Positions 37,536-55,700 of a stretch of DNA of 64,000 nt are shown piece after piece. Both the position numbers and the translations under genes were made by a program. Below the pieces are notes generated by a model that searched no databases, was not told the DNA's origin, and saw only the letters and a list, made by a program, of their open reading frames with translations. Origin of the DNA: Archangium sp. (GTDB taxonomy: Bacteria; Myxococcota; Myxococcia; Myxococcales; Myxococcaceae); NCBI GenBank assembly GCA_030681645.1, contig JAUXRX010000057.1, positions 310,001 to 374,000 of the forward strand. Reading direction: 5' to 3'. Numbering within the stretch: position 1 is the stretch's first letter; each line of letters begins with the position of its first letter.

Positions 37536-38459
37536 CTATCGATTCTCCCGGTACCAGCCGACCGTCTGCGCCATCCCTCTTTCGACGTCGACTTGTGGGG
37601 CCCAGCCCAACACCTGCTTTGCCTTCGAATTGGCGAGCACGCTGCGGCGTTGCTCTCCCATCCGCTCGGGCCCGTACTTCGCCGGGGTCGAGACGCCCAG
37701 GTTCTTCGCCAGCAACTCGTACACGCGATTGACGTCGGTCTCGGTCGAGGTCGCGATGTTCACGCCGCCACAGAAAGAAGTGGTGAGGGCCTTCACGTTC
37801 GCGTCCACCACGTCGCCCACGTAGACGAAGTCGCGCGTCTGCCCGCCGTCGCCGTAGATGGTGCACGGATCACCCCGCAGCAGCCGCTCGGCGAAGATCG
37901 CCACCACCCCCGCCTCGCCGTGCAGGTTCTGCCGCGGCCCGTAGACGTTCGCGTAGCGCAGCGCCACGTAGTGCAGCCCGTACATCGCCCGCCAGCAGCT
38001 CAGGTACAGCTCTGCCGCGAACTTCGACACGCCGTAGGGCGAGACCCCCGCGGGTGGCTCCGTCTCGGGGGTCGGCATCACCAGGCTGTCGCCGTACATC
38101 GACCCGCCCGACGCCGCGTAGACCACCCGCTGCAGCGCCCCGCCCCGCCGCCCCGCCTCGAGCAGGCTGAGCGTGCCGCCCACGTTCGTGTCTGCGTCGA
38201 AGCGCGGATCGGTCACCGACTTGCGCACGTCGATCTGCGCCGCGTGCAGGTTGAGCGCCTCGGGCTTGAAGGCCTCCACCGCGCTCGCCGCCGCCTCGCT
38301 CCGAATGTCAGCCTCGAGGAAGCGCGCCTTCGGGTTCAGGTTCTTCCGATCACCCGTCGAGAGGTTGTCGACGATCAGCACCTCGTGTCCGAGCGCCAGG
38401 TACGCGTCGGCGATCTGCGAGGCGATGAAGCCCGCGCCACCCGTGACCACGAGCCGCAT
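37536..38459 (-). CDS. NAD-dependent nucleotide-sugar epimerase/dehydratase
   Basis: A 307-residue extended short-chain dehydrogenase. The NAD-binding motif TGGAGFIASQI (6-16) is at the N-terminus, the catalytic YxxxK appears as SPYGVSKF, and RYANVYGPRQ matches the family's substrate-binding region. It is like UDP-glucose or UDP-hexose 4-epimerases (GalE-type), but the substrate is not determined. It is the last gene of a three-gene coupled set: its ATG overlaps the stop of the TviC-type epimerase by one base (TGATG). It probably helps make a sugar nucleotide for surface polysaccharide. The 3' end faces the HerA-like gene across a palindromic repeat. Confidence 0.88.
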   Translation of the reverse strand: MRLVVTGGAGFIASQIADAYLALGHEVLIVDNLSTGDRKNLNPKARFLEADIRSEAAASAVEAFKPEALNLHAAQIDVRKSVTDPRFDADTNVGGTLSLLEAGRRGGALQRVVYAASGGSMYGDSLVMPTPETEPPAGVSPYGVSKFAAELYLSCWRAMYGLHYVALRYANVYGPRQNLHGEAGVVAIFAERLLRGDPCTIYGDGGQTRDFVYVGDVVDANVKALTTSFCGGVNIATSTETDVNRVYELLAKNLGVSTPAKYGPERMGEQRRSVLANSKAKQVLGWAPQVDVERGMAQTVGWYRENR

Positions 38460-39441
38460 CAGCTCGCTCCCATGACGTACGCGACCGTCTCGTCGAGGCC
38501 CTGCGCCACGGTGTGCGTCGGCGCGTACCCGAGCTTCTCCTTCGCCCGGCTGATGTCGGCCTGCGAGTCCTTGATGTCCCCGGCCCGGAACGGCTGGAAC
38601 GTGGGCTCGAGCGACGCGAGCGCGGGGCGCTGCTTCGAGAGGCGCTCCCGAATGAACTGGTAGAGCTCGAGCAGGCTCGTCTTCCCTCCCACCGCGACGT
38701 TGTAGACGGCGTCGGTCGCGCCCGGCACCTGGGTGGTGGCCGCCCGCAGGTTCGCCTGCACTGCGTTGGCCACGAAGCAGAAGTCACGGCTGGTGCTGCC
38801 GTCGCCGTTGATCACGCACGGCTTGCCCTCGACCAGCGCCGCCATCCACCTGGGGATCACCGCCGCGTACGCGCCGTTCGGATCCTGCCGGGGACCGAAC
38901 ACGTTGAAGTACCGCAGCCCGATGGTCTCGATGCCGTACGTGCGCTGGAACACCGACGCGTAGACCTCGTTGATGTGCTTCGTCGCGGCGTAGGGCGAGA
39001 GCACCCGGCCCGTACGCGACTCGACCTTCGGCAGCGTCGGCTCGTCGCCGTACACCGAGCTCGAGGACGCGAACACGAAGCGCTTCACCTTCGCGTCGCG
39101 CGCGGCCACCAGCATGTTCACGAAGCCGTCGACGTTCGCGCGGTGGCTGTCGAGCGGGTGCGCGATGCTGCGGGGCACCGAGCCGAGGGCTGCCTGATGC
39201 AGCACGTAGTCCACGCCCGTACACGCCGCCTGGCAGGTCTCGAGCGAGGTGATGTCACCCTCGAGGAAGGTGAAGCGCGCTGAGGCTGCGGGGCCCGCAC
39301 GCTTCACCGCGTCGTCGAGGTTGTGCTGGTAGCCGGTGACCAGGCTGTCGAGCGCGACCACCTGGTGGCCGTCACGCAACAACGTCTCCACGAGGTGCGA
39401 GCCGATGAAGCCCGCGCCCCCGGTGACGAGCCACTTCGCCA

Positions 39442-39442
<1 letters not shown>
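38459..39442 (-). CDS. tviC: TviC/WbpP-type UDP-N-acetylhexosamine(uronate) C4-epimerase
   Basis: A 327-residue extended short-chain dehydrogenase that inverts C4 of UDP-GlcNAc or its uronic acid in aminosugar polysaccharide pathways. WLVTGGAGFIGSHLVE is at the N-terminus, HQAALGSVPRSIAHPLDSHR is diagnostic for the WbpP/TviC subfamily, SSSSVYGDEPTLPK follows, and the catalytic tyrosine/lysine pair appears as SPYAATKHINE. RYFNVFGPRQDPNGAYAAVI also fits. The open frame runs upstream into the neighbouring gene, but the real ATG at 39442 overlaps the stop of tviB by one base, giving translational coupling. The pair tviB-tviC makes UDP-N-acetylgalactosaminuronic acid in known systems. Confidence 0.88.
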
Positions 39443-40725
<1,283 letters not shown>

Positions 40726-40912: not shown

Positions 40913-42063
40913 TCCTCCAGCACGGCGCGGGTGACGAAGGCGAGCGACACCAGCCGCCGCAGGGCCCGGCCCTTCCCCTCGGGGAGCACCGCGCCGAACG
41001 ACTGGGCGAGGCTCTCCACGCTGCCCGGCGGACCATCGACGAGCCGGCCCAGCACGCCGCGCAGGTTGAGGTAATCGTCCGGCGCGGCGCTCTCCCGCGC
41101 GAGGAGATCGCGGCAGAAGCTGCCCCACCCCAGCTGGAGGTCCCCCGGGCGGATGAACTGCTTCCACGCGGCGATCACCTCGGCGCGATCGCCGGCCCGG
41201 GCGAGGTCTTCGGCGCTCAGGTCGAGGTGCTGCGGCACACGCGGACCGATGGGCCGCACCGGCTTGAGCAGGCGCTCGAAGCGCTCCCCGGTGTCGAGGC
41301 GCTCGGCCACCAGCTGCACCAGCTCGGGGTCGTCGGGCTGCGGCCGGTCGGGATCACACATCGGCCACGCGTTCGCTTCACCGAAGACCACCACCAGGTC
41401 GCGCCCGCGCAGCACCGCCGTCGGGTCGACGCGCACGGTGTTGCGGTGCTTGCGGTTCTTGTGGCGCGCCGAGCTGGGGTTCTCGCGGATGTAGTCGAGC
41501 TGCTTTTCCACCATCGCGTCGAAGGCGGTGAGGATCGGGGTGAAGCGCGTGGGCGCCTTCTCCAGCCGGCCCAGCACGAACGCCGTCGCTTCGATGGTGG
41601 CCAGGCAGTGCGCCTCGGGTTCCTTGCGAATGCGGTAGTTGCCGGGCTGATCGGGGAAGAACTTGAGGCGCGGCAGCTTCGAGAGCAGCGGGCACTTTTC
41701 CACCACCTTCTTCGCGTTCGACCAGGTGCCGTCGACGACGACCAGCGTCTCGGGTGGCACGGTGAGCGCGTCGACGTCGGTGGCCGACTCGCTGGGGAAG
41801 AGCACGGCCACGCCCGGTCGCGCGCACAGCTTCTCCAGGGCGGGGTTGCCCACCGCGCTCAACCCCACGTGCAGCTCGGAGTTGGGCAACGAGAGGTGCG
41901 CCATGCGGCAGGTGCTGATCGGCACCTTCGCCTCGCGCGGGTGCTGAATGAAGACCACCCGCGTCTGGCTGGGCACCTGGGTGACCGCGTCGCACCAGCA
42001 CACCGATCGGGGCCTGCGGCAGCGCAAGCAGACTTCCCGGTACCCGGCGGCGGCGACTTCCAT
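40837..42063 (-). CDS. DTW-domain protein (TapT-like) with extra C-terminal exonuclease-shaped domain
   Basis: DTW proteins transfer an aminocarboxypropyl group from SAM to tRNA uridine (acp3U). Residues 1-210 match: a zinc-type cluster CLRCRRPRSVCWC (12-24), VVVDGTWSNAKK around 108-119 with the D-x-T-W signature (111-114), and YRIRKEPEAHCLATIEA. Residues about 220-380 are extra. They have a DEDD-exonuclease-like shape (DLVVVFGEANAWP, RFERLLKPVRPIGP, a late LNLRGVLGRL), but the first acidic pair is not intact. The last 25 residues come from the hairpin repeat. The ATG at 42063 begins the domain; upstream codons do not look coding. It is divergent from the ECF sigma gene. Confidence 0.82.
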   Translation of the reverse strand: MEVAAAGYREVCLRCRRPRSVCWCDAVTQVPSQTRVVFIQHPREAKVPISTCRMAHLSLPNSELHVGLSAVGNPALEKLCARPGVAVLFPSESATDVDALTVPPETLVVVDGTWSNAKKVVEKCPLLSKLPRLKFFPDQPGNYRIRKEPEAHCLATIEATAFVLGRLEKAPTRFTPILTAFDAMVEKQLDYIRENPSSARHKNRKHRNTVRVDPTAVLRGRDLVVVFGEANAWPMCDPDRPQPDDPELVQLVAERLDTGERFERLLKPVRPIGPRVPQHLDLSAEDLARAGDRAEVIAAWKQFIRPGDLQLGWGSFCRDLLARESAAPDDYLNLRGVLGRLVDGPPGSVESLAQSFGAVLPEGKGRALRRLVSLAFVTRAVLEEKGDRLLNARRSRGTRTARETASIK

Positions 42064-42157
42064 GCGTCGGGCACCCTGTGCCCGGTCCCGCGCTCGACCG
42101 CAAGGTGAGGCTTGCGAGCCGTTTCGCGGCCGTGAAGGCTCTGTCTTCCAGGCTCCC

Positions 42158-42745
42158 ATGGCGCTGCCCAACCCCCGGCCACCACTGCGAATCGTCGACG
42201 GCCCCACGGCCGAGGCGGCCCTGGTGCGCGCCGCGGTGGAAGGCGACGGCAGCGCGAGCGAGCAGCTCTACCTCACCTGCGCCCCCGACCTGGGCCGCTG
42301 GGTGGCGCGGGTGGTGCTCGGCTCGGCCGACGCCCAGGACATCGTGCAGGACACCTTCGTCGTCGCCTTCACCCAGCTCAAGAAGCTCAAGCGCCCCGAG
42401 GCCTTTCGCGGCTGGCTGCGAACCATCGCGCTGACCCACATCAGGCGCCGCTTCCGCACCCAGCGCCTGCTGCGGCGGCTGGGCTTCGCCACCGCGGAGC
42501 CGTTCGAGCTCGAGTCGATCCTCAGCGAAGACGCTCCGCCCGAGGTGATCACCGAGGTGCGCCAGGTGGCGGCCCTGCTGCGGCAGCTCCCCGCCGACGA
42601 AGCGCTGGCGCTCGTCTTGCGCCGCGTCGAGGGGTACCGGCTGGAAGAGATCGCCGAAGAGCTGAAGCTGTCCCTGGCCACGGTGAAGCGGCGGCTGGCA
42701 GCGGCTGAGTCGCACTTTCAGGCCTTGCAGGAGGTGCAGTCATGA
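42158..42745 (+). CDS. ECF-family RNA polymerase sigma factor
   Basis: A 195-residue group 4 sigma factor. Region 2 is at about 25-90 (SADAQDIVQDTFVVAFTQLKKL, FRGWLRTIALTHIRRRF), and region 4 at about 140-190 (LPADEALALVLRRVEGYRLEEI, LSLATVKRRLAAAE). It lacks region 3, as expected. The stop overlaps the start of the FecR-like gene (ATGA), the usual layout for a sigma factor with its anti-sigma partner. The ATG at 42158 is chosen because the domain starts there; the open frame extends upstream into the divergent region. It probably drives its own seven-gene run. Confidence 0.92.
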   Translation: MALPNPRPPLRIVDGPTAEAALVRAAVEGDGSASEQLYLTCAPDLGRWVARVVLGSADAQDIVQDTFVVAFTQLKKLKRPEAFRGWLRTIALTHIRRRFRTQRLLRRLGFATAEPFELESILSEDAPPEVITEVRQVAALLRQLPADEALALVLRRVEGYRLEEIAEELKLSLATVKRRLAAAESHFQALQEVQS

Positions 42746-43857
42746 GCCGACGTCCTCTCTCTGACTTCGTCACGCCGCCGCAGCCCGATCCCACCTCGCT
42801 CCACGTCGAATGGCACGAGGTGCGGCGCCGCGTACGCCGGCATCGGCAGGTCCGGGTGGCGGGTGTGGTGGCGGCCTCCCTGGTGGTGGTGCTGGGGGTC
42901 GTCGCCGCCGTCGTGCGCACCCCCGAACCGTCGCTCCTTCCCGGGCAGCAGGCCCTCGCCGTCGAGGCGCCGCGAAGGCTCACCCTCACCGATGGCTCGG
43001 TGGTCGAGCTGGCCATGGGCGGGCAGCTCGCGCTCGCGCTGGCCGACGAGCACGACGTGGTGGTGGTGCTCGAGCGGGGCCGCGCTTCGTTCGACGTCTC
43101 GAAGAAGCCCACGCGGCAGTTCGTGGTGAAGGCCGACAGCATCGAGGTGCGCGTCATCGGCACGAAGTTCCGGGTCCGGCGCGAGGGGCCGGCCGTCGAG
43201 GTCGAGGTCGAGCGCGGCATCGTCGAGGTGCGGGACGGTGCCGTGGTGCGGCGGCTGGTGAAGGGCGAGCGCTGGGCCCGCGTGGTCCAGGCCGTCGCAG
43301 CGGAGCCCGGGCAGGAGCCCGCGCAGGATGACGAGGCCCCGGCCGAAGCCACCACCCCCGCGAAACGGAAGGTCAACGTGCGTCGCCCGGCCCGCGCGCC
43401 CGAGCCCGTGGCCGAGCAGCCCCTCACCGCCCCGGTCGCCCAGAGCCCGCCGGTGGAGCCGCCCACGGAGACGGAGGCGCAGACCGCGCCCACGCCGGCC
43501 GACACCTTCGCCGCCGCCATGCGCGCGCGTGGAGCGGGTCGCCCGAAGGAGGCCATCGTCGGCTTCCAGCAGGTCTGTGAGCGCTGGCCCTCGAGCGCCT
43601 TCGCGCCGATGAGCGCCTTCGAGTGGGGCCGGCTCGCCCTCGACACCCAGGACGATCCCCGCCAGGCAGCGCGCGCCTTCGAACGCACCCTCGAGCTGGC
43701 CACCTCGGACTCGCTCATCGAAGACGCTTTGGCACGGCTGACCGAGGCGTACGCGAGGTACGATGCCGGCTCCTGTCGCCGGGCGCAGTCTGACTATCTG
43801 CGGCGCTTCCCCGGTGGCCCCCACGTTCGAGGCGTGACCAAGGCGTGTCCCCCCTGA
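42742..43857 (+). CDS. FecR-type anti-sigma/signal-transducing membrane protein
   Basis: A 371-residue protein with a short cytoplasmic N-terminus, a membrane segment at about 39-60 (VAGVVAASLVVVLGVVAAVV), a FecR domain (about 75-185, with LTDGSVVELAMGGQLALAL and VIGTKFRVRREGPAVEVEVERG), a Pro/Ala linker, and a C-terminal TPR-like part (about 255-365). FecR proteins sit in the inner membrane, hold or activate their ECF sigma factor, and respond to signals from the outer membrane. It begins inside the sigma gene's stop (ATGA) and ends with TGATG overlapping the next gene. No TonB-dependent receptor gene is visible here, unlike classic FecIRA systems. Confidence 0.88.
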   Translation: MSRRPLSDFVTPPQPDPTSLHVEWHEVRRRVRRHRQVRVAGVVAASLVVVLGVVAAVVRTPEPSLLPGQQALAVEAPRRLTLTDGSVVELAMGGQLALALADEHDVVVVLERGRASFDVSKKPTRQFVVKADSIEVRVIGTKFRVRREGPAVEVEVERGIVEVRDGAVVRRLVKGERWARVVQAVAAEPGQEPAQDDEAPAEATTPAKRKVNVRRPARAPEPVAEQPLTAPVAQSPPVEPPTETEAQTAPTPADTFAAAMRARGAGRPKEAIVGFQQVCERWPSSAFAPMSAFEWGRLALDTQDDPRQAARAFERTLELATSDSLIEDALARLTEAYARYDAGSCRRAQSDYLRRFPGGPHVRGVTKACPP

Positions 43858-44708
43858 TGTTGGTGGCATCGTTGTCAGTGAGCGCTGCGTCGTGCAGCGG
43901 TGCGGAAGGCGAGGTGCCGGCGCGCTTCGTCGCGTTCGGCGACGCTGACTCCACGTGGCTCGAGCAGGAGATCGCCGGCTGGGTGGCAGAGCGCGACCGC
44001 AAGCTGTGTTCCGCCCGGGCCGGAGACGAAGCCCTCACCATCGACGGCAGCGCCCCTCTCGAGGTGGCGATCGAGTTCGACTTCAAGGGCGCTCACCGCA
44101 CCCGCCGCGTGCTGCGCGGCTCGGAGTCGGCCGAGCTCTTCCGCTACCAGGTCGCCGCCACCGCCGAGGAGCTGGTGCGCTCGACGTGGGAAGCCCCGCC
44201 GCCTCCACGCGTGGGCGTGTTCGCCCGCGGTGAGGTCGCCCCCCTGGGCACGGGCCCCTTCGCCGTCGGTGGAGCGATCGGCGTGGGCCTGTTCGTGCTG
44301 CCGACCCTGTGTCTGGAGCTCGCCGGGGGCGGGGGCGCGCTCACCGCCACGACGCTGCCCACAGGAGGCACGGTGACGGGGAGCGTGGTGCGCGGCACGT
44401 TCTCGGCCTCGTGGCTGCCGCTGCAGGCCGGCGTCTTCCGCGCGGGGCCGCGGGCCTCGGTGCAGGCCGGGCTGCTGTCCTCGAGCGTGCGCGAAGAAGG
44501 CCTGACTCCCAGCACCGGCGCCACGCCGTGGCTCGCCGCGGGTGGCGGCCTCACCGTGGGCGTCGCCACCCGTCACCTGATGCTGCAGCTCTTCGGTGAG
44601 CTCGGCGCGTTGCTCATCGGCACGACGGTGCTCTCGGAAGGCGTGCCGGTGCACCAGGTGCGCGGGCTGCTCGGCACCGTGGGCCTTCAAGCGGGGTGGC
44701 TCTGGTGA
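43857..44708 (+). CDS. Exported protein with outer-membrane-like tail
   Basis: A 283-residue protein with a short signal peptide (LVASLSVSAASC, possibly a lipobox). The N-terminal domain (about 15-110) is mixed, and the C-terminal part (about 115-283) is glycine- and beta-rich with alternating residues (VGLFVLPTLCLELAGGGG, LSEGVPVHQVRGLLGTVG), ending in a tryptophan as many outer-membrane barrels do. No family is recognised. The ATG overlaps the FecR stop by one base (TGATG); a GTG four codons earlier is the alternative. Its stop overlaps the next start (GTGA). It could be the outer-membrane sensor partner for FecR; that is inference. Confidence 0.65.
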   Translation: MLVASLSVSAASCSGAEGEVPARFVAFGDADSTWLEQEIAGWVAERDRKLCSARAGDEALTIDGSAPLEVAIEFDFKGAHRTRRVLRGSESAELFRYQVAATAEELVRSTWEAPPPPRVGVFARGEVAPLGTGPFAVGGAIGVGLFVLPTLCLELAGGGGALTATTLPTGGTVTGSVVRGTFSASWLPLQAGVFRAGPRASVQAGLLSSSVREEGLTPSTGATPWLAAGGGLTVGVATRHLMLQLFGELGALLIGTTVLSEGVPVHQVRGLLGTVGLQAGWLW

Positions 44709-45814
44709 GTCTCCGGCTCCTGGCCGTGCTGGCGCTCGCCCAGCACTTCGAGATCGTCTCCGATTGCGGCGGCGCGGAGGCTCCACCGGTGAAGGACGCG
44801 CCCGCCCGGCAGGTGGTGGGCGGTGGCTTCTTCGGCTGCGCGGTCGACGAGGGCGCGGTGCGCTGCTGGGGCAACAACGAGCGAGGCCAGCTCGGCCGGG
44901 GCAGCACGAGCCGGCAGGAAGCGTCGGGGGTGGTGACGCTGCCCGAGAAGGTGGCGCAGCTCGCGCTGGGGGAAGCCTCCGCCTGCGCGCGCACCGTCAC
45001 GGGCGGGGTGTGGTGCTGGGGCGACAACGGCACCGCCCAGCTCGGCGCGCCCAGTCCCGCCTTCAGCGCGGTCCCGCTCGAGGTGAAGGTGCCGGTGCCG
45101 GTGGCGAAGCTCGCGCTGCATTCCGACTTCGCGCTCGCGCTGGGGAGCGATGGCCGGCTCTTCGGCTGGGGCAATGACGCCGAAGGCACGCTGGGCCGCG
45201 ACAACGTCGATCCCGGCAGCGTCTCACCGACGCCGGTGGTCCGCGCCGCCTTCACCCAGCGCTTCACCGACATCACCGCGGGCCAGGGCAACGCCTGCGG
45301 GCTGACCCCGGCCGGCGAGCTGTGGTGCTGGGGCCGGGTGCTCACCGCTGCCGATGAAGGCGTGCGCACGCCGGTGAAGTTCCTCGACGGCGTGAGCGCG
45401 GTGGTGTCGGGCGCGTTCGTCGCCTGCGCCATCCGCTCGGGCGAGCTGTGGTGCTGGGGCTCGAGCCCCACCAACGACGGGCTGACGATGGCCTGGCCGG
45501 TGCCCACCCGCCTCGAGCTCGGGGGCGGGTCCGTGCGACAGGTCGACTCGCAGTGGTTCCACGTGTGCGCGGTCACCACGCTCGACACGGCCTGGTGCTG
45601 GGGCCGGGGCATCGAAGGCCAGCTCGGCCTGGGGGGCACCGACCCGTTTCCGACGCCCCAGCTCGTTACCGCGGAGGTGGAATCAGTGGCGACCGGCTTC
45701 TTCTTCACCTGCCTGCGGCGGAAGAACGGGGCAGTGGCGTGCACCGGCGCCAACGAGTTCGGCCAGCTGGGCCTGGGCGACAGCGACCGCCGATACGTGC
45801 CGCAAGATCAGTGA
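44705..45814 (+). CDS. RCC1-type seven-bladed beta-propeller, exported
   Basis: A 369-residue protein with a short hydrophobic N-terminus and seven RCC1 repeats. The signatures are VRCWGNNERGQLG, VWCWGDNGTAQLG, LFGWGNDAEGTLG, LWCWGRVL, LWCWGSSP, AWCWGRGIEGQLG and VACTGANEFGQLG, about 50 residues apart. Seven blades close one propeller, so the protein is complete. Cysteines in most repeats suggest disulfides, fitting an extracellular location. It starts at GTG inside the preceding stop (GTGA), showing tight coupling. RCC1-like propellers bind proteins or sugars on bacterial surfaces; the partner is unknown. Confidence 0.8.
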   Translation: MSLRLLAVLALAQHFEIVSDCGGAEAPPVKDAPARQVVGGGFFGCAVDEGAVRCWGNNERGQLGRGSTSRQEASGVVTLPEKVAQLALGEASACARTVTGGVWCWGDNGTAQLGAPSPAFSAVPLEVKVPVPVAKLALHSDFALALGSDGRLFGWGNDAEGTLGRDNVDPGSVSPTPVVRAAFTQRFTDITAGQGNACGLTPAGELWCWGRVLTAADEGVRTPVKFLDGVSAVVSGAFVACAIRSGELWCWGSSPTNDGLTMAWPVPTRLELGGGSVRQVDSQWFHVCAVTTLDTAWCWGRGIEGQLGLGGTDPFPTPQLVTAEVESVATGFFFTCLRRKNGAVACTGANEFGQLGLGDSDRRYVPQDQ

Positions 45815-45848
45815 GCCGATGCGAGGGCGTGGAGGCTCTCTCTCCAGA

Positions 45849-47183
45849 ATGCGCGCACCGCTGGTGATCCTCGTGACCTCGGCGTGTCTGGCCACAGGCT
45901 GCCTTGGCGTTGCGGGCACCATGCCCGGCGATGAAGACGCAGGCGCTCAGCTCGACGCGGGGGGGACGGGCGGAGGCGCGGCGGGGGGCGGTGCGACCGG
46001 TGGCGGCGCTGCGACGGGTGGCGGCACGGCGAGTGGCGGCGGCACTGCGACAGGCGGCGGCGGCGGTGCGACGGGCGGAGGCACAGGCGGCGGCAGCGTG
46101 CAGCCCGACGCGGGGAGCACGCGCGTTCCGGTCTTCGTCGCGGTCGGCAAGCAGCGCCGCAGGGCCATCTCGTGCGACGACGGGCTGAGCTGGAAGAACG
46201 ACGTCACCATCGACGACGAGTGGCCCGCGAACGAGCGCTACCGCTGCTTCTCAGGCGACTTCGCGCTGCCCGACGGCGGCACGCAGAGCACCGACTGCGA
46301 TCACAACGCGTACTCCTCGACCAGCCTCGTGTACGCGGGCGGCGCGTTCCTGCAGAGCACCGGCTGGGGCGCGCCGGGCGCGTTCTTCCGCTCCACGGAC
46401 GGCGTCACCTGGCAGCAGGTGCACACCGGCGCCAACGTCACCGAGCTCATGTTCGGCGACGGGCGCATCATCGCGGCCACGCGGGCCTCGCGGGTGAGCG
46501 ACGATCTGGGGCTGACCTGGCGCAACGGCACGGAGATCGACGTGGCCAACGGCGCCAACACCATCTGGAACGTGCGCGGCGGCGCGTTCGGGGGCGGGGT
46601 CTTCCTGGTCACGGCCGAAGACAACCCCAACCGCGACTTCGCCTACAGCAACAACGGCGGCACGACCTGGCAGCGCCCCACCCTGGTGGGCGGTGGCCGG
46701 GTCGACGCGTGCGGCGCAGGTCACCCGGCGGCGGGCAATGGCCTCTTCGTCACCGCCACGCAGAACATGGACACCATCGTCATCTGCCGCAGCGGCGACG
46801 GGGCACAGACGTGGACGTCGACCACCATTCCCAACGAGTACTTCGAGTCACGCCCGCTGTGGACGGGCACGGAGTTCATGCTCTGGGGCAGCGGCCGCGT
46901 CTTCCGCTCGGCCGACGGGATCACCTGGACCTCGGCCAACACGCAGACCCGGCGCAACGGCACGCTCTCGGGCGGTCCGAACATCGGCCCCGTCGCCATC
47001 AACGCCGCGGGCACCTTCGTGGCGGTGAGGGGCGGTTGGCAGACCTGGTACGAGCAGCAGCGGTTCTACCGCAGCAGCGACGGCGTCATCTGGGACGAGC
47101 TCGCCGCGGGTACCTACGAGCAGGGTCACCCCGTCACGGCGATCGTCTCCGGCTTCGCAGAGAGGAGCTCCGTGTGTCCCTGA
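45849..47183 (+). CDS. Lipoprotein with seven Asp-box (BNR) repeats, sialidase-like propeller
   Basis: A 444-residue probable lipoprotein with the signal ending ATGC and a Gly/Thr-rich linker (about 35-90). Seven Asp-box repeats follow, the S-x-D-x-G-x-T-W pattern: SCDDGLSWKND, RSTDGVTWQQV, SDDLGLTWRNG, SNNGGTTWQRP, RSGDGAQTWTS, RSADGITWTSA, RSSDGVIWDEL. This indicates a sialidase/BNR-type beta-propeller, but no sialidase catalytic arginine triad is evident, so it may be a binding module. The ATG at 45849 starts the signal peptide. Its end overlaps the start of the next gene by ten bases. Confidence 0.82.
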   Translation: MRAPLVILVTSACLATGCLGVAGTMPGDEDAGAQLDAGGTGGGAAGGGATGGGAATGGGTASGGGTATGGGGGATGGGTGGGSVQPDAGSTRVPVFVAVGKQRRRAISCDDGLSWKNDVTIDDEWPANERYRCFSGDFALPDGGTQSTDCDHNAYSSTSLVYAGGAFLQSTGWGAPGAFFRSTDGVTWQQVHTGANVTELMFGDGRIIAATRASRVSDDLGLTWRNGTEIDVANGANTIWNVRGGAFGGGVFLVTAEDNPNRDFAYSNNGGTTWQRPTLVGGGRVDACGAGHPAAGNGLFVTATQNMDTIVICRSGDGAQTWTSTTIPNEYFESRPLWTGTEFMLWGSGRVFRSADGITWTSANTQTRRNGTLSGGPNIGPVAINAAGTFVAVRGGWQTWYEQQRFYRSSDGVIWDELAAGTYEQGHPVTAIVSGFAERSSVCP

Positions 47184-48970
47184 AGAGACTGCTGCTCAGT
47201 GCAGTGCTGGCGGGCTGCAGCGGGGAGATCATCGGCCCCCGCCCTGACCCGGTGACGGTGCCCGGCGTGCTCGACCCGGTGGTGGATCCGGCCACGCGCC
47301 CCGAGTGGTTCGCCTGTGAGCCCGAGGCCGACCCCTCGCCCGAGGTGGTGCTGCGGCTGACCCCCACGCAGTACCGCAACACCCTCGAGGACCTGCTCGG
47401 CCGGGCGTATTCCCCCGCGCAGCTGCAGGCGCTCTTCGCCACGGCCAACGTCACCGCCCAGCTGGCGGCGTTGCCGGTCGACGGCAGCACGCACCGGGCC
47501 GAGGTGACCTACGACTCGATGGATCAGCGGATCAGCCCCCTGTTGACCGAGCCCCAGTTCGAGCTGGCCACCGCGGTGGGAGAGTGGATCGCCAACGACC
47601 CGGCCCGCCTGCAGACCTTCACCCAGACTTTCGGCAACTGCGCCACGCCGGCCCAGGGCGCGTGCGTCGAAGCCGTGGTCGAGGGCTTCGGGAAGCTCGC
47701 GCTGCGACGGCCGCTCGACCCCGACGACCGGGTGACCTACCGCGGCGCGTACGACGACGCTGCGTACGGTGGCTACCAGGCGCTGATCGCCGCGCTGCTG
47801 CTCGCCCCCGACTTTCTCTTCCGCGCCGAGTTCCACGGAGAGGCGATCGCCGGGCGCACCGACTTCACCCGCCTCACCCCACACGAGCTGGCCAACCGCA
47901 TCTCGTACGCGCTGCTCAACTCGATGCCTGACGACGCCCTCTTCGCGGCGGCCGCCGCGGGCTTCACGGGAGAGCACCAGACCGTGGAGGCGCAGCTCGC
48001 GCGCCTGCTCGCCACGCCGCGGGCGCGGGCGCAGAACGAGCACTTCTACCGTCAGTGGCTGCGGCTCGATCGCGTGCCCGGCTTCAACCCCTCGGCGGCG
48101 AGCGCGCTGGCGCTGCAGTACCCCGATGGCTCGGCCCCGCCGCTGGCCGCCGACACCGATCTCTCGCGGCTCCGGTTCGAGGCCTTCGAGGAGTCCGTGG
48201 CGTTGATGACGTACTACGCCGAGCACGGCTCGCTGCGTGACGCCATCTCGAGCGACGTCTCGTTCGCGCGTACGCCCACGCTCGCGCAGCTCTACGGAGT
48301 GCCGGCCTGGGACGGCAGCGACACCCTGGTGCACTTCCCGCCCGGCCAGCGCGCGGGGCTCTTCACCCGCGCCGCGTACCTGCTCTCGGGCTACCCCGAC
48401 ACCAACCCGGTGATGCGCGGCGCGCGGCTGCGGGTCGAGTACCTGTGCGACGACATGGAGCCGCCGGCCAACACCTCGCCCCCCGCCAACTACATGCCGC
48501 CCACCGTGCCCACGGTGCGCAACGCCGTGATCGCGAAGACCGAGATCGCCGGGAGCGCGTGCCAGGGCTGCCACCAGCACTCCATCAACCCGCTCGGCTT
48601 CCCCTTCGAGAGCTACGACGCCTTCGGGCGCTACCGCACCCAGGAGCCGCTGCTCGACATGGCCGGCGCGGTGAGCACCTGGGTGAAGGTCGATGCGTCG
48701 ACGCAGCCCAACCTCGATCGCAACGGCAACCCGGCGCGGGTAGCCGATGGGGTGTCGCTCTCGGCCCTGCTCGCCGATTCGCAGCGGCTGCACGCCTGCT
48801 ACGCGCGGCACACCTTCCGCTACGTGCTGGGCCGGCATGAAGCGGCCGCAGACAACTGCGCGCTGGGCAGCATGGAGCGCGCGGCCGGCACCGGCTCGCT
48901 GCGAGACGTGCTGCGCGGGCTCACCTTGTCGAAGGGCTTCGCGCTGCGGCGCATGCCGGCGGGGAACTGA
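47174..48970 (+). CDS. DUF1592/1588/1585-type lipoprotein with CxxCH haem motif
   Basis: A 598-residue protein of the exported family known as DUF1592 (with DUF1588/1585 tail), common in Planctomycetes and myxobacteria and of unknown reaction. The N-terminus has a lipobox (VLAGCS). LTPTQYRNTLEDLLG (about 60) is the family's first block, LALRRPLDPDDRVTY and LLLAPDFLFRAE are mid blocks, and CQGCHQHSINPLGFPFESYDA (CxxCH near residue 462) is the haem site in the DUF1588 region. ACYARHTFRYVLGR near the end is the DUF1585 region. The GTG at 47174 has GAGGAG upstream and begins the signal. It is followed two bases later by the DUF1552 gene, its normal partner. Confidence 0.88.
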   Translation: MSLKRLLLSAVLAGCSGEIIGPRPDPVTVPGVLDPVVDPATRPEWFACEPEADPSPEVVLRLTPTQYRNTLEDLLGRAYSPAQLQALFATANVTAQLAALPVDGSTHRAEVTYDSMDQRISPLLTEPQFELATAVGEWIANDPARLQTFTQTFGNCATPAQGACVEAVVEGFGKLALRRPLDPDDRVTYRGAYDDAAYGGYQALIAALLLAPDFLFRAEFHGEAIAGRTDFTRLTPHELANRISYALLNSMPDDALFAAAAAGFTGEHQTVEAQLARLLATPRARAQNEHFYRQWLRLDRVPGFNPSAASALALQYPDGSAPPLAADTDLSRLRFEAFEESVALMTYYAEHGSLRDAISSDVSFARTPTLAQLYGVPAWDGSDTLVHFPPGQRAGLFTRAAYLLSGYPDTNPVMRGARLRVEYLCDDMEPPANTSPPANYMPPTVPTVRNAVIAKTEIAGSACQGCHQHSINPLGFPFESYDAFGRYRTQEPLLDMAGAVSTWVKVDASTQPNLDRNGNPARVADGVSLSALLADSQRLHACYARHTFRYVLGRHEAAADNCALGSMERAAGTGSLRDVLRGLTLSKGFALRRMPAGN

Positions 48971-48972
48971 GA

Positions 48973-50679
48973 ATGAAATTCCATCGACTGAGCCGGCGAC
49001 ACTTCCTGCAGGGCCTCGGCGGCGCGTCGCTCGCCCTGCCGCTGCTGCCGTCCTTGATGAACAGGGCCGAAGCGCAGGGCATGACCGCGCCGCGCTTCTT
49101 CGTGAGCACGTGGGTCGGGCACGGCGGCATCAGCGAAGAGAACGCCTACCCCATCGACTCCACCGTGAGCCTCTCGGACCAGACGCTGACGCCCGCCTCG
49201 GGCAGCGAAGGCGCGCACGTGGCGAAGGTGGGCCGGCTGGTCGAGCTCAAGCGCACGCACCCCGCCACCGCCGCGGCGCGTGTCCAGGTGCTGACCGACT
49301 TCGATGCGGGCGCGGCGCGCTTCTCGCCCCTGCTGGGCGCGTTCGTCGAAGACCCGCTGCTGGCGAAGCTCAACGTGCTGCGGGGCATCGACTTCCTCAC
49401 CTTCGGTGGCCACACCCGCGGCTACCTGGGCAACTTCGTCAATCGTGATGGCGGCGCCGACAACGGCATGGCCGACCTCCAGATCCCCACCATCGACGCG
49501 GTGATCGCGGGCAGCCCGAAGTTCTATTCGCAGGGTGAGCGGGCGCTGCTCAAGGCGCCGGTGCTGAACGCGGCGAGCCCGCACCTGAGCTCCTTCACCA
49601 GCGGCGCCACCGTGGCCAACAACCCGTACCGCGTCTCGCGGCTGGGCGAGTTCTACGACCTGCTCTTCGGCGGCGTGAACACCACGCCCGGCCAGCAGCC
49701 GGATCCGCGCGTGTCGCTGCTCGATCGGGTGCACCAGGACTACCGGCGCCTGAGCCGCGGCGCGTTCGGCCCGGGCCGCCGCATCAGCACGGAAGACCGC
49801 CAGCGCCTCGAGGAGTACGTGGCCGGCGTGCAGACCATCAGCGACCGCATGCGGGCGATGGTGTCTGCCGGGTGCTCGCTGCCCACCGTGGCCCAGGGCC
49901 AGCGCACCTTGTACCTGCGCGAAGGAGAAGCCGACTGGGACTGGGACTCGGCCGCGACCATGCCGCAGCAGCGCGTGGCCGATCAGCGCACGGTGCTCGA
50001 GCTGCGCAACCAGATGCTGGTCAACGCGTTCCTCTGCGGCACCTCGCGCATGGCGGTGATGTCGTTCGCCTCGATCCGCGACCAGTGGGACCCGGCGATC
50101 TTCAACACCCCCAGCCAGTGGGAGACCCAGCGCACCGACGCGCACGGCATGCTCTTCCACAACCACGGCCTGGCGGATCGCCAGCAGCACCTGCTCAGCA
50201 GCCAGCGCTTCTTCATGCAGTACGGCTTCATCGATCTCGTGCGTCGCATGCAGAGCACCCAGGTGCTGCCGGGCGTGACGATGCTCGACCAGGCGCTGGT
50301 GTACTGGAGCTCGGAGAGCGGCTTCGCCACCCACAACGCCAAGTCGGTGCCGGCGATCATCGCGGGCGGCGGCGGCGGGTATTTCCAGACGGGGAACTAC
50401 GTCGACTACACCAACCGCACCCGGTCCATCCGCGGGCGCTGGGGTGATCAGTGGACCGCGGGCATCCCCCAGAACCGCCTGCTGGCGAACATCGCGCAGG
50501 CGATGGGCCTCTCGCCTTCGGACTACGAGCTGAGCGACGCGGCGTACTCCACGAAGTTCGCCTCGCGAGGCGGGCGCGTGCCCGGCTACGGCGACCCCTT
50601 CATCGAGCCGGGTGACGACAAGGTGCCCTACCCGCCCGCGATGGTGGCGGCGATGAGCGAGAAGCTCCCCTTGCTCTGA
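48973..50679 (+). CDS. Tat-exported DUF1552-family protein
   Basis: A 568-residue protein with twin-arginine motif SRRHFLQG (7-14) and a cleavage site near AEAQG, so it is exported folded through Tat. The body has the DUF1552 blocks (RFFVSTWVGHGGISEEN, NVLRGIDFLTFGGHTRG, RLEEYVAGVQTISDRM, MAVMSFASIRDQWDP, PAIIAGGGGGYFQTGNYVDY). DUF1552 proteins are typically encoded next to a DUF1592 protein, as here, with a two-base gap. Joint function is presumed but the reaction is not established. It is the last gene of the seven-gene ECF run and is convergent with a lipoprotein ending at 50686. Confidence 0.88.
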   Translation: MKFHRLSRRHFLQGLGGASLALPLLPSLMNRAEAQGMTAPRFFVSTWVGHGGISEENAYPIDSTVSLSDQTLTPASGSEGAHVAKVGRLVELKRTHPATAAARVQVLTDFDAGAARFSPLLGAFVEDPLLAKLNVLRGIDFLTFGGHTRGYLGNFVNRDGGADNGMADLQIPTIDAVIAGSPKFYSQGERALLKAPVLNAASPHLSSFTSGATVANNPYRVSRLGEFYDLLFGGVNTTPGQQPDPRVSLLDRVHQDYRRLSRGAFGPGRRISTEDRQRLEEYVAGVQTISDRMRAMVSAGCSLPTVAQGQRTLYLREGEADWDWDSAATMPQQRVADQRTVLELRNQMLVNAFLCGTSRMAVMSFASIRDQWDPAIFNTPSQWETQRTDAHGMLFHNHGLADRQQHLLSSQRFFMQYGFIDLVRRMQSTQVLPGVTMLDQALVYWSSESGFATHNAKSVPAIIAGGGGGYFQTGNYVDYTNRTRSIRGRWGDQWTAGIPQNRLLANIAQAMGLSPSDYELSDAAYSTKFASRGGRVPGYGDPFIEPGDDKVPYPPAMVAAMSEKLPLL

Positions 50680-50685
50680 GCAGGC

Positions 50686-51912
50686 TCAGGGGATCGGCGC
50701 GCCGCTCGTCGCGTCGAGGCGCGCCACGGAAGTTCCGCCGTCGTCGGCGAGGTACGCCACGAAGACGGTGCTGCCCTGGCGGAGGACCGCGACGTTCGAA
50801 CCGGCGATCCCCGGCCCGAGCGCGCGAACCCACCCGGCGTAGGGAGCGGCGGCGAAGACGGTCGGGCGGCCCGGGGTGAAGCCTCCGTCGTCCGCGATCG
50901 TTCCCTGGAGCCGCACCCGGTCGGTGGCCTGGCCCACGATCACGCCGCCGCTCACGTCGCCGAGCGCGAGCGTTCCGAGCGTGTCGATGGACTGGCGCGG
51001 GCGCGCCGAGAACAGCGAGGTCGTGCGATTGAAATCGAAGCGATCGAGGAAGACGGCCTGCCCTCCGTCAGCGGGCACGCACACGTCGAAGCCCACGGTG
51101 CCGCTCTCGGAGAAGCGGCCGAGGCGCCGGGGGCCGGACGACACGATCGCGGAGCGATCGCCTTCCGCGGTGATCGACTGGATTCCCGAGCCTGAGCTGA
51201 TGCCCACCGTCACGCCCAGCCCCGAGCACGCGGCGGCGGACCACGCGATGACGACGCGAGTGCCCTCGCCGGCCCGGAGCACCTCGAGATCGTGAAAGGC
51301 GACCTCGCAGTTCTCGTAGCCGAGGTTGGTGGGCTGGGCGGCGAGATCGGCGGGGTAGATCTGCTGTCCGTAGCCGGTGCCCGCGGTGCTCCAGACCGAG
51401 GCGAAGACGCCCGCGTCGTTGAAGAAGGTCGTCACGTGCTGGCCCGCGGTCGCCGTCCCGTTCGCGCCGCCGTCCTCGTAGAGCAGCTGGAGCTGCGAAT
51501 TGGTCTGGCCCACGATGGCGGCGAACACCGGCGTGGAGACACCGTCCGCGTACGCCGAGATGATCCGGCCCGCATAGCCCTGGCCGCCGGCGACGCGCGT
51601 TCCCTGCGCATCGAGCAGGATCACCAGGCCGCCGTCTGCGGTATTGCTGGCGAGCCAGAGTGCACCCGCGCGCCCGCGCGGAAAGAGGCCGATGGGTCCG
51701 AGCGTGGGGTCGACCCCGCTGCCTCCACCGCTGCCTCCGCCGGTGCCGCCGCCGCTGCCTCCGCCGGCGCCGCCTCCGGTCCCTGCGTCGGTGCCTCCGC
51801 CGGTGCCGCCATCGCAGGCCGTCAGGTCTCCCGCGTTGCACCGGGCCTGGCGCTCAGCGGCAGCCCAATCACAGCCACTGGCCAGCACGCACAGAAAGAG
51901 GGCGCGCTTCAT
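50686..51912 (-). CDS. Hypothetical lipoprotein, beta-rich
   Basis: A 408-residue probable lipoprotein. The signal ends LASGC, followed by Gly/Ser/Thr-rich linkers (about 32-65). The rest is beta-rich with repeating short blocks (GALWLASNTADGGLVILLD, FAAIVGQTNSQLQLLYEDG, VFVAYLADDGGTSVARLD), suggestive of a propeller, but no motif is diagnostic. The frame is open far upstream through the neighbouring gene; the ATG at 51912 overlaps the stop of that gene (ATGA) and begins the signal. The upstream gene at 51909-52691 and this one form a two-gene operon, convergent with the DUF1552 gene six bases away. Confidence 0.7.
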   Translation of the reverse strand: MKRALFLCVLASGCDWAAAERQARCNAGDLTACDGGTGGGTDAGTGGGAGGGSGGGTGGGSGGGSGVDPTLGPIGLFPRGRAGALWLASNTADGGLVILLDAQGTRVAGGQGYAGRIISAYADGVSTPVFAAIVGQTNSQLQLLYEDGGANGTATAGQHVTTFFNDAGVFASVWSTAGTGYGQQIYPADLAAQPTNLGYENCEVAFHDLEVLRAGEGTRVVIAWSAAACSGLGVTVGISSGSGIQSITAEGDRSAIVSSGPRRLGRFSESGTVGFDVCVPADGGQAVFLDRFDFNRTTSLFSARPRQSIDTLGTLALGDVSGGVIVGQATDRVRLQGTIADDGGFTPGRPTVFAAAPYAGWVRALGPGIAGSNVAVLRQGSTVFVAYLADDGGTSVARLDATSGAPIP

Positions 51913-52762: not shown

Positions 52763-55700
52763 ATGCGCTGTCCCCCTCTCTTCGCCTTGCTTCTCGCGGT
52801 CTTCACCTTCCAGGCCTGTGAGTGCGGCCAGCCCGGCACCAACACCACGGGTGGTGGCGGCGGCGCGACCGGCGGCGGCAACGCTGGCGGTGTCGGCGGC
52901 GGCTCAGGCGCCGGTGGAGGGTCGGCTACCGGTGGAGGATCTGCCACCGGGGGCGGCTCAGGCACCGGCGGCGGCAGCGCGACCGGCGGTGGTGGCGGCG
53001 CAGGTGGCGGCGCAGGTGGCGGCGACGCCGACGCGGGCCCCCAGTGCACCACCAGCCAGTACCTCTCGAACGGAACCTGCGTGGCCCTCACGGTCTGCAC
53101 CGCCGCCCAGTTCGAGTCGGCGCCGGCCAGCCCCACCACCGATCGCGTTTGCTCGGCGCTCACCTCGTGCCTGGCCACCCAGTTTCAGTCCATTCCCCCG
53201 ACCGCCACCTCGGACCGCACGTGCAACCCGCTGACCGTGTGCGTGGCGGGCCAATTCGAAGCCAGCGCGCCCACCCTCACCGGCGATCGCGTGTGCCGGC
53301 CCATCTCCACCTGCCAGGTCACGGAGTACGAAGCGGCCCCGCCGACCGCCACCAGCGACCGCGTCTGCCGCCCGCTCACCGTCTGCGCCAGCTACGAGTA
53401 CGAGACCGTTCCGCCCACCGCGACCACCAACCGCACCTGCAGCTTCACCACGCAGTGCACCTTCGCCGAGTACGAGACCGTTCCGCCGACGGCCACCACT
53501 GATCGGCAGTGCACCGCCCTCACCATCTGCGGCTCGGCGCAGTGTGAGACCACGCCCCCGACCGCCACCACCAACCGGGTGTGCGGCCCGCTGGTCTTCG
53601 ACGTCACCCCCTCGACGCTGCAGACGGTGGTGGTGCCCATCGGGCAGACCTCACCCACGGTGGTCTTCACCGCCACGGCTTGCGGCAACCCCGTCAGCGC
53701 CGCGTGGACGCTCGACGTCGGCAGCATCGGCACCATCAGCCCCGGCCCCTCGAGCACGTCCACCTTCGCGCCCTCGGGCACCCTCGGCGGAATGGTCAAC
53801 GTCATCGCCGGCTACCAGGGCTCGTCCGCGAGCCGCCGGGTGCTGGTGCAGCTGACCGGCGGGACCCAGCACGGGATCAACCCGGCCTCGCCCCTCGAGC
53901 TGGCGCAGGTGCCCGCGACCATCGCCGCGCTCACCGCGGGCGGTGGGGTCAACGGCGTCGGCGGTGAGGGCCTCGGCCCCGCGCTGCCGGCCAACGATCC
54001 CAACCTGGTTGCGCTGCAGGGTACGCCCGCGGGCAACGGCTCCACCCAGGGGCTCCGGCTGCTCTACCCCTACGACCGGACGGTCTGGCCTCGCGGCATG
54101 CTGGCCCCGCTGCTCCAGTGGGACTGGTCGCTGGCTGACGCAGACGGCGTGCGCATCGACCTCTCCACCACCACCGGCTCCTTCAGTTGGACCGGGTACT
54201 TCGGGCGACCGGCGATCCTCGCGCAGCTCCCGGTGGCGCGACAGAAGTTCATCCGCCACCCGATCCCCCAGGACATCTGGAACACCGCCACCGACAGCGC
54301 AGGCGGCCCCACGCCCAGCGGAATGCCTGACCAGCTCACCCTGCGCGTCACGGTCGCGAGGGGTGGCGTCGCCTACGGGCCCCTCACCCAGACCTGGACC
54401 ATCGCGGCGGCCCGCCTCACCGGCACGATCTACTACCAGTCGTACGGCACCAACCTCGCCAACAACTACACGGGCGCGCAGGGCACACCCACCACCTTCG
54501 GGGCGGCGGTGCTGTCGATTCGCGCGGGCGACACCGGCCCCGCGCTCGTGTCCAGCCAGAACAACTGCCAGGTCTGTCACTCGGTCGCGTCGAAGGGCGC
54601 GCGCCTCGTCACCCAGGCCTCGACCAACGGCAACAACGACACCTGGGAGTATTCGCTCTCGGCAGGAGGCACGACCAATTCCCAGCTCGCCCGCGGCGTG
54701 CCCCAGCCAGGCTACCCGGCCCTCTACACCGACGGCTCGATGCTGCTGACCTCGGCGGGGCGGCTGCAGAGCCTGCCCAACAACGCCGGGGCCGATCTCG
54801 TCAGCACAGGGCTCGCGGGGGTGACCACCAACCTCGGCATCCCCGCCTTCAGCCCCGACGGCAGGCGCGTGGTCTTCAACCCGCAGAACACCGTGACGCA
54901 CCCGGGCCGCGAGCTGATGGTGATGGACTTCGACAAGCTGACCAACTCCTTCAGCAACCCCACCGTGGTGGTCGACGATTTCCTCACCGCGCCGGGGAAC
55001 ACGGAGATCCGGTCGGTGTGGCCGCAGTTCTTCCCCGACAGCAACTCGCTGGTGTACCAGCACCAGCTCGAGGCCGGCGTCGACGGAATCCAGGCCAACG
55101 CCGACGCGCACACGCGCAAGTTCGCGCAGGGCCAGCTGTACTGGACCAGCGCGGTGAGCTCCTCGGTGCAGCAGCCGCTCAACGCCCTCAACGGCCTGTT
55201 GCCCAGCGGCGTCTCGTACCTGCCCAGCCTGGCCACCGGCGTCACCTTGAGCTGCACCGCCGACGGGACCGCGGTGGGCTCGAACGCGGGCGCCAACGGC
55301 GACAACACGCACTCGCTCGACTCGAACTACAACTACGAGCCGACGGTGAACCCGGTCAGCTCGGGCGGCTACGCCTGGGTCGTCTTCACCAGCCGGCGCA
55401 TGTACGGCAACGTCGCCACCATTCCCCCGTTCTGCAGCGACCCGCGCGGGGTGGACCTGCACGCGAACATGACCACCAACACCAACATCACCACCAAGAA
55501 GCTCTGGGTGGCGGCCATCGACATCAACGCGGCGCCCGGGTCCGACTCGAGCCACCCGGGCTTCTACCTGCCCGCGCAGGAACTGCTCGCCGGCAACGCC
55601 CGCGGCTTCTGGGTGCTCGACCCCTGCCGCGCCGACGACGCGTCGTGCCTGACCGGCGACCAGTGCTGCAACGGCTTCTGCCAGCCCAACGGGCTGGACG

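What the first reader, a model, noticed from the sequence alone, without database searches (positions are those of the whole stretch)
42158..50679. Seven-gene ECF-controlled surface operon with two propellers and a DUF1592/DUF1552 pair
A sigma factor, its FecR-like partner, an exported barrel-like protein, an RCC1 propeller, an Asp-box lipoprotein, a CxxCH DUF1592 protein and a Tat-exported DUF1552 protein follow each other; most joins are 1-10 base overlaps and the widest gap is 34 bases. DUF1592-DUF1552 pairs are known as neighbours but their reaction is not. I know of no described system that places them under an ECF-FecR switch with two propellers. Inference: a signal-triggered outer-surface haem-protein complex, with propellers for substrate or partner binding.
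Basis: partly seen in the sequence, partly recalled or inferred. Interest (0 to 1): 0.75.

Follow-up and report, generated by a model that had tools for sequence, protein, structure and literature searches.

The report
Sigma-switched surface haem-protein gene set
Seven neighbouring genes in a myxobacterium look like two adjoining operons that one membrane-controlled sigma factor switches on together, and the same predicted switch sequence lies before other copies of these poorly understood surface haem-protein genes elsewhere in related genomes, which makes their function testable.

Summary
The seven genes are real: ECF sigma, FecR anti-sigma, outer-membrane barrel, RCC1 propeller, Asp-box lipoprotein, DUF1592 lipoprotein with one CxxCH, Tat-type DUF1552. 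The full order was found in one other genome among 96 of the family (one draft undecided). Elsewhere the pieces are separate modules. The main new result is regulatory. A two-block motif, GAGCCGTT-N13-GGCTC, precedes the sigma gene in 4 of 4 orthologous modules; a one-mismatch copy sits in the 34-base gap before the Asp-box gene, so this is probably two co-regulated operons. The motif, read from the sigma genes alone, recurs at one mismatch or fewer upstream of 7 of 62 DUF1592 genes in six genomes of the genus (one is the gap copy itself); 200 permuted motifs gave mean 0.07, maximum 2. Several targets are unlinked to the sigma gene. Its first block, TGAGCCGT, precedes 7 of 8 DUF1592 and 6 of 12 ECF genes examined in a second genus. 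I infer an ECF regulon for surface DUF1592-DUF1552 and Asp-box proteins, perhaps sensed through a small barrel instead of a TonB receptor. Signal and reaction remain unknown.

The parts
42116..42141 (+). predicted ECF-type promoter P1 (GAGCCGTT-N13-GGCTC), 16 bases before the sigma start codon
   Evidence: exact in 4 of 4 orthologous modules, 14-18 bases before the start
42158..42745 (+). ECF sigma factor, 195 aa
   Evidence: Pfam Sigma70_r2/r4_2; NCBIfam TIGR02937 1.1e-20
42742..43857 (+). FecR-domain anti-sigma, 371 aa: short N-terminal part, hydrophobic stretch about residues 39-58, FecR domain 76-162, weak TPR tail
   Evidence: Pfam FecR 3.1e-15; hydropathy
43845..44708 (+). x: signal peptide (by eye), alpha/beta domain (about residues 22-115), eight-stranded outer-membrane barrel
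   Evidence: AlphaFold pLDDT 84.5; Foldseek to OmpA, NspA, OmpW, OmpX at E 7.8e-6 to 1.4e-4
44705..45814 (+). exported RCC1 propeller, 369 aa
   Evidence: Pfam RCC1_2 9.8e-36
45813..45838 (+). predicted ECF-type promoter P2, one mismatch to the P1 motif, 10 bases before the Asp-box gene
   Evidence: same 10-base distance before the relatives in G010 (2 mismatches) and G009 (1 mismatch)
45849..47183 (+). Asp-box lipoprotein with Gly-rich linker; six strict and one looser Asp-box-like stretch
   Evidence: alignment of 16 sequences; pattern check
47174..48970 (+). DUF1595/1592/1588/1585 lipoprotein with one CxxCH (haem c) motif
   Evidence: Pfam; CxxCH in 65 of 67, Cys at the lipobox position in 97%
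48973..50679 (+). DUF1552 (HXXSHH) protein with twin-arginine start
   Evidence: Pfam 4.6e-13; alignment of 42 sequences; model pLDDT 75 with weak sulfatase matches

Best explanation
The run is two adjoining operons of one ECF regulon. Operon 1 (ECF-FecR-x-RCC1) is the switch: FecR holds the sigma factor at the inner membrane, and the small outer-membrane barrel x, with its periplasmic domain, is the likely surface sensor that tells FecR to release it. Freed sigma then reads a TGAGCCGTT-type promoter before its own operon (P1) and before operon 2 (P2: Asp-box lipoprotein, haem-c DUF1592 lipoprotein, Tat-exported DUF1552). In relatives it also reads promoters before unlinked DUF1592-DUF1552 pairs and Asp-box genes. 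The products probably act together on the envelope or surface; DUF1552 may be a divergent alkaline-phosphatase-superfamily hydrolase and DUF1592 an electron-carrying partner. Shown by sequence: genes, order, motif at both operons, motif at unlinked targets in two genera, barrel model. Inferred: that the motif is this sigma's promoter, that x is the sensor, that the products work together, any chemistry.
For: P1 motif exact in 4 of 4 ECF orthologues while the neighbouring upstream sequence differs. P2: 1-mismatch copy in the RCC1/Asp-box gap, 10 bases before the Asp-box gene here, in G010 (2 mismatches) and in G009, where that gene stands apart from the other modules. Motif read from ECF genes only, then tested: 7 of 62 DUF1592 upstream regions at <=1 mismatch (the window's own is P2); all 7 among the 52 genes of the four genomes that have the module, 0 of 10 in G008 and G012, where no module was found; permuted motifs mean 0.07, max 2, none of 200 reach 7; spacers 8-12 and 14-20 give 0 at <=1 mismatch. 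Fixed positions 90% identical over 15 sites (which were chosen on them), spacer 37%, flanks 28-29%. Second genus g26: TGAGCCGT in sense before 7 of 8 DUF1592, 6 of 12 ECF, 2 of 7 Asp-box genes; over all loci 0 of 128 FecR, x, RCC1 and DUF1552 genes; antisense control 2 of 46 ECF, 2 of 69 DUF1592, 0 of 20 Asp-box. 9 of 48 DUF1592 regions against a maximum of 4 for 1679 permuted words. Linkage: 26 of 68 distinct pairs examined have ECF-FecR within 5 kb. In G011 the orthologous ECF module sits divergently beside a different DUF1592 clade. x follows FecR in all four modules; weaker relatives hold the same place in other genera.
Against: No transcript data. Full gene order seen in only two genomes. 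In the window's genome only 2 of 13 DUF1592 genes carry the motif (one of them via P2), and G010's copies before targets have 2 mismatches. Three of 7 Asp-box genes in the module genomes lack it. At <=2 mismatches the test weakens: 10 regions match, but 6 match antisense, spacer 8 also gives 10, and one permuted motif gave 9. Of 14 exact genome-wide matches, eight are at neither ECF nor DUF1592 genes. The second block (GGCTC) is not a textbook ECF -10, and its closeness to start codons would mean very short leaders. The 20 Myxococcus-type loci with divergent ECF-FecR have another upstream block. The 68 pairs came from searches with the window's DUF1552 and Asp-box proteins, so 26 of 68 is not a family-wide rate, and 20 of the 26 are one clade.
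Confidence: 0.6

Rival explanations
1. The motif is an operator for a dimeric transcription factor, or an RNA hairpin near the start codon, because GAGCC and GGCTC are complementary; the sigma factor is then only a neighbour.
For: Five-base inverted repeat with constant 16-base spacing in the first genus; placed close to start codons.
Against: The adjoining conserved GTT is not mirrored on the other side. In genus g26 the second block is GGATC, GGCTTC or similar, no longer complementary, while the first block stays. The first block precedes ECF genes in four genera (g1, g24, g25, g26).
Confidence: 0.2
2. One seven-gene operon from a single promoter before the sigma gene; the copy in the 34-base gap is chance.
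For: Short joins throughout; no plus-strand terminator match in 42000-51000. Eight of 100 shuffles of the window had two or more matches at <=1 mismatch.
Against: Expected 0.34 matches at <=1 mismatch in the whole 64 kb window, yet one falls in the gap at the distance kept in two relatives, one of which has the Asp-box gene apart.
Confidence: 0.12
3. As to chemistry: the pair is an electron donor for oxidative polysaccharide attack, as suggested for Cellvibrio Cbp2D, which carries DUF1587; propellers bind the polymer.
For: DUF1587 in Cbp2D (PMC8981238, one passage read); PSCyt genes near sulfatases and with carbohydrate-binding modules in Verrucomicrobia (PMC5615132, passages read).
Against: No LPMO, glycosidase or carbohydrate-binding domain among the Pfam hits of the seven proteins; the haem domain studied in Cbp2D is X183, not DUF1587.
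Confidence: 0.2
4. A chance cluster of unrelated exported genes.
For: The full order was seen in only 2 of 96 genomes; in G009 the three modules lie on three contigs.
Against: Order and joins are kept in G010 although no flank similarity was found beyond one 44-base match; motif shared by the scattered modules.
Confidence: 0.06

Closest known systems
FecI-FecR-FecA cell-surface signalling (PMC9249621, passages read)
   Same: ECF sigma, membrane FecR-domain regulator, outer-membrane protein with an N-terminal periplasmic domain, target genes for surface functions
   Different: The outer-membrane partner is an eight-stranded barrel, not a plugged TonB-dependent one; no TonB receptor in the run; FecR shows only the FecR domain with a TPR-like tail; the motif is before the sigma gene too, whereas the review says fecIR is not autoregulated
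DUF1592/DUF1552 pairs (planctomycete-specific PSD/PSCyt3 domains; PMC5615132, passages read)
   Same: Domain set, one CxxCH, PSCyt3 gene next to a second gene of unknown family
   Different: Here linked to an ECF-FecR switch and an Asp-box lipoprotein; the passages I saw give no regulator
Rhodopirellula ECF RB10049 and PSD1/PSCyt2 protein RB10051 (PMC2754498, passages read)
   Same: An ECF factor proposed to regulate a planctomycete-specific cytochrome-domain protein
   Different: Cousin family (DUF1549/DUF1553); no FecR, barrel or propellers named in those passages; another phylum
Sulfatases of the alkaline-phosphatase superfamily
   Same: Weak fold likeness of the DUF1552 model
   Different: No sequence match in the PDB, TM about 0.3, no nucleophile identified

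Membership tests
Fec-type cell-surface signalling | ECF sigma next to FecR-domain transmembrane regulator | tested here: met
Fec-type cell-surface signalling | TonB-dependent receptor with N-terminal signalling domain in the locus | tested here: not met
   x is modelled as an 8-strand barrel of 287 aa; no TonB-receptor Pfam hit among the seven
Fec-type cell-surface signalling | accessory FecR-family domains DUF4880 and DUF4974 (names recalled) | tested here: not met
   only FecR and weak TPR hits
Fec-type cell-surface signalling | targets read by the sigma factor | tested here: inconclusive
   shared upstream motif only
DUF1592-DUF1552 pair | PSD4, PSCyt3, PSD2 domains above cut-off and adjacent HXXSHH protein above cut-off | tested here: met
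DUF1592-DUF1552 pair | haem attachment | not testable with these tools
   CxxCH motif present
Alkaline-phosphatase superfamily (DUF1552) | fold | tested here: inconclusive
   ranks 1-11 are sulfatases apart from one phosphonate monoester hydrolase, but best E 1.8e-3, TM 0.31
OmpA/OmpX-type small barrels (x) | eight-stranded outer-membrane barrel | tested here: met
   predicted structure only
ECF autoregulated promoter | two-block motif at fixed spacing before sigma gene and targets | tested here: met
   best supported at <=1 mismatch
ECF autoregulated promoter | sigma-dependent transcription | not testable with these tools
   needs wet work

The most novel reading that the evidence does not exclude
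A TonB-independent form of outer-membrane-to-sigma signalling: a small eight-stranded barrel with a periplasmic domain replaces FecA as the receptor for FecR, and its ECF sigma factor governs a dispersed regulon of surface DUF1592-DUF1552 redox/hydrolase pairs with Asp-box propeller lipoproteins in at least two genera of myxobacteria.
Probability: 0.35. Interest if true: 0.75.

Novelty: new variant of a known kind. Interest (0 to 1): 0.62.

Why it matters
DUF1592-DUF1552 pairs are numerous (13 DUF1552 matches in this genome; 26 DUF1592 matches in G009) and, in the papers I saw passages of, without known function. A predicted sigma factor, anti-sigma, sensor candidate and promoter give a handle: force the sigma on, or remove FecR, and see which surface proteins appear and what they do. 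A small barrel as sensor would add a variant to cell-surface signalling, which the review I read in passages describes for TonB-dependent receptors.

Tried and rejected
Seven-gene order as a widely kept system: rejected, seen in 2 of 96. Single-genome linkage as evidence: 13 DUF1592-DUF1552 pairs and 14 FecR matches in 10.2 Mb give an expected 0.2 pairs with a FecR within 6 kb by chance (my arithmetic), so one linked pair alone proves little. A shared promoter in the Myxococcus-type loci: a conserved AGGAAAGT...GTAG block is before DUF1592 there; I saw no such block on the ECF side. Two-block words shared by g26 ECF and target genes by exact 5-mers: one word in one locus only; the shared part is the first block plus a degenerate second. 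One search read the 12 own-genome regions other than the window's out of frame; corrected. The 8-mer permutation test (7 of 1679 words reached 9, highest 19) contained 20 closely related Myxococcus-type loci; without them and their neighbours in that list none of 1679 did. Sequence search of the PDB gave nothing useful for genes 5-7. The Inositol_P hit on DUF1552 (6.1e-5, below cut-off) was dropped. A mobile-element border as the meaning of the dyad: no copy at <=2 mismatches was near the 3' end of the run (one search list for the window).
Full report
What is there. Seven same-strand genes at 42158-50679. Pfam confirms ECF sigma, FecR, RCC1, DUF1592/1588/1585 and DUF1552; the third gene has no hit and the fifth only sub-cut-off propeller hits; NCBIfam supports the sigma factor and adds nothing decisive elsewhere. 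Joins: -4, -13, -4, +34, -10, +2 bases. The fifth protein has six strict and one looser Asp-box-like stretch (the pattern is recalled) and 29 invariant columns over 16 sequences. The sixth has a single CxxCH, kept in 65 of 67 sequences, and a Cys at the lipobox position in 97%. The seventh begins with a twin-arginine stretch; over 42 sequences R8, C355, H396 and H454 are among the invariant residues.

The third gene, x. An alignment of 12 gave an AlphaFold model with mean pLDDT 84.5 and pTM 0.58: an alpha/beta domain, then eight long strands. Foldseek's first PDB matches are OmpA and NspA, with OmpW and OmpX among the first twelve. Relatives of x lie after FecR in other genera (profile E 1.7e-5 to 0.0025 for four of them within a set of 86 candidate ORFs, above that for the rest).

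DUF1552. The model (pLDDT 75) matches choline sulfatase and other sulfatases first, but at E 1.8e-3 and TM 0.31, none at E 0.001 or better. I take this as a lead to the alkaline-phosphatase superfamily, no more.

Conservation. In 96 genomes of the family the window-type DUF1552 (over 60% identical) is in six: G000, G010, G009, G012, G087, G094; the six form one supported clade of 68 rows. Orthologues of x are in 4 of 96, of the sigma factor (74% identity or more) in the same four. The full order is in G000 and G010, with dN/dS 0.17-0.28 for every gene and no flank similarity beyond one 44-base match. G012's contig begins inside the Asp-box gene, so its upstream part is unknown. In G009 the modules are on three contigs: ECF-FecR-x-RCC1, the Asp-box gene, and DUF1592-DUF1552. 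In G011 the same ECF module is divergent from a different DUF1592-DUF1552 clade. Of 68 distinct pairs tabulated (69 rows, one a duplicate; taken from searches with the window's DUF1552 and Asp-box proteins plus the window genome's own pairs), 26 have ECF-FecR within 5 kb: 23 divergent, 2 upstream on the same strand, 1 downstream. Twenty of the divergent ones are one Myxococcus-type clade. Asp-box relatives lie within 500 bases of 9 of the 68 pairs, in three arrangements.

The motif. Aligning the four ECF upstream regions showed GAGCCGTT-N13-GGCTC in all. In the window one further copy at one mismatch lies at 45813-45838, in the gap before the Asp-box gene (expected 0.34 matches in 64 kb; 8 of 100 shuffles had two or more). 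Scanning relatives found it before Asp-box genes of G010 (2 mismatches), G009 and G011, and before DUF1592 genes at five loci of the genus (one at 2 mismatches). Four of 7 Asp-box genes in the module genomes have it at <=2 mismatches, 0 of 9 in other genomes. Genome-wide, exact matches numbered 14 in six genomes against 0 for the reversed pattern: five at ECF genes (one a probable assembly duplicate), one at a DUF1592 gene of G009, eight elsewhere, whose contexts I mostly did not examine. A looser pattern, refined after seeing targets and therefore circular, gave 35 matches against 8 for the reversed pattern: 13 before ECF, Asp-box or DUF1592 genes (14 with the duplicate), seven sharing one coding-like sequence (ELFGH-type, by eye), and of nine further loci looked at, six inside predicted genes.

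Fair test. The ECF-only motif on 62 DUF1592 genes of six genomes: 7 at <=1 mismatch, one of them P2 itself; permuted motifs mean 0.07, maximum 2, none of 200 reach 7; every other spacer from 8 to 20 gives 0. One antisense match at <=1 mismatch is G011's divergent Asp-box site. All 7 are in the four genomes with the module (52 genes), none among 10 genes of G008 and G012. At <=2 mismatches 10 match in sense, 6 antisense, spacer 8 also gives 10, permuted mean 1.55 and maximum 9, so two-mismatch sites alone are weak.

Second genus. In g26 the ECF genes that head ECF-FecR-x-RCC1 runs have TGAGCCGTG...CTTCTCAC-like sequence. The word TGAGCCGT is in sense within 300 bases of 7 of 8 DUF1592, 6 of 12 ECF and 2 of 7 Asp-box genes there; over all loci it precedes 11 of 46 ECF genes (expected 0.29; antisense 2), 9 of 69 DUF1592 (0.43; antisense 2), 2 of 20 Asp-box (0.12; antisense 0) and 0 of 128 FecR, x, RCC1 and DUF1552 genes. 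Without the 20 Myxococcus-type loci, 9 of 48 DUF1592 regions carry it against at most 4 for any of 1679 permuted words; with them 7 words reached 9. The second block in g26 is no longer complementary to the first, which speaks against a hairpin or dyad operator.

Reading. A sigma gene, its targets and a shared oriented two-block motif at fixed spacing is the usual sign of an autoregulated ECF promoter (general knowledge). I therefore favour two adjoining operons of one regulon, with unlinked members in relatives. That x is the sensor rests on its place after FecR and on its build; no test was possible.

Literature. Searches for DUF1592, DUF1552 and related names and for ECF with FecR in myxobacteria in the held open-access library listed no paper that describes this regulon; I saw listings and passages only, and most papers of subscription journals are not held. 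PMC5615132 (passages) calls the functions of PSCyt genes unknown; PMC2754498 (passages) cites a suggested ECF-PSCyt2 link in Rhodopirellula and lists a DUF1552 protein in a table of shared stress-response genes; PMC8981238 (one passage) places DUF1587 in an LPMO-related cytochrome; PMC9249621 (passages) describes Fec signalling.

Noticed in passing
L059, L060, L062-L064, L168-L182: Twenty Myxococcus-type loci have DUF1592-DUF1552 one way and ECF-FecR the other way, with a conserved AGGAAAGT...GTAG block before DUF1592; in the loci whose maps I printed there is also a roughly 310-350 aa gene before ECF and, in most, a roughly 180-190 aa lipoprotein after FecR.
   Followed up: partly
L153-L156, L075, L160: Asp-box lipoprotein relatives recur near DUF1592-DUF1552 pairs: downstream in genus g26, divergent in the window's own genome (C10), 4 kb off in G009.
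   Followed up: partly
G009 and G008: One draft genome of the genus has 26 DUF1592 matches, another has two.
   Followed up: no
L229 1501-1526: A loose-pattern match 180 bases before a caspase-like gene (named by eye) in the window's genome (C60); could be a further target or chance.
   Followed up: no
window 52763-55831: Long exported protein with Gly-rich linker, TNFR-type Cys-rich and PD40 hits below cut-off; a relative lies near the G011 module (L061 2061-4214).
   Followed up: no
window 37536-40725: Two NDP-sugar epimerase-like genes and a UDP-sugar dehydrogenase-like gene upstream on the minus strand (named by eye), then a DTW-domain gene.
   Followed up: no
G009 C522 and C713: The same ECF upstream stretch appears on two small contigs, probably an assembly duplicate.
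   Followed up: no
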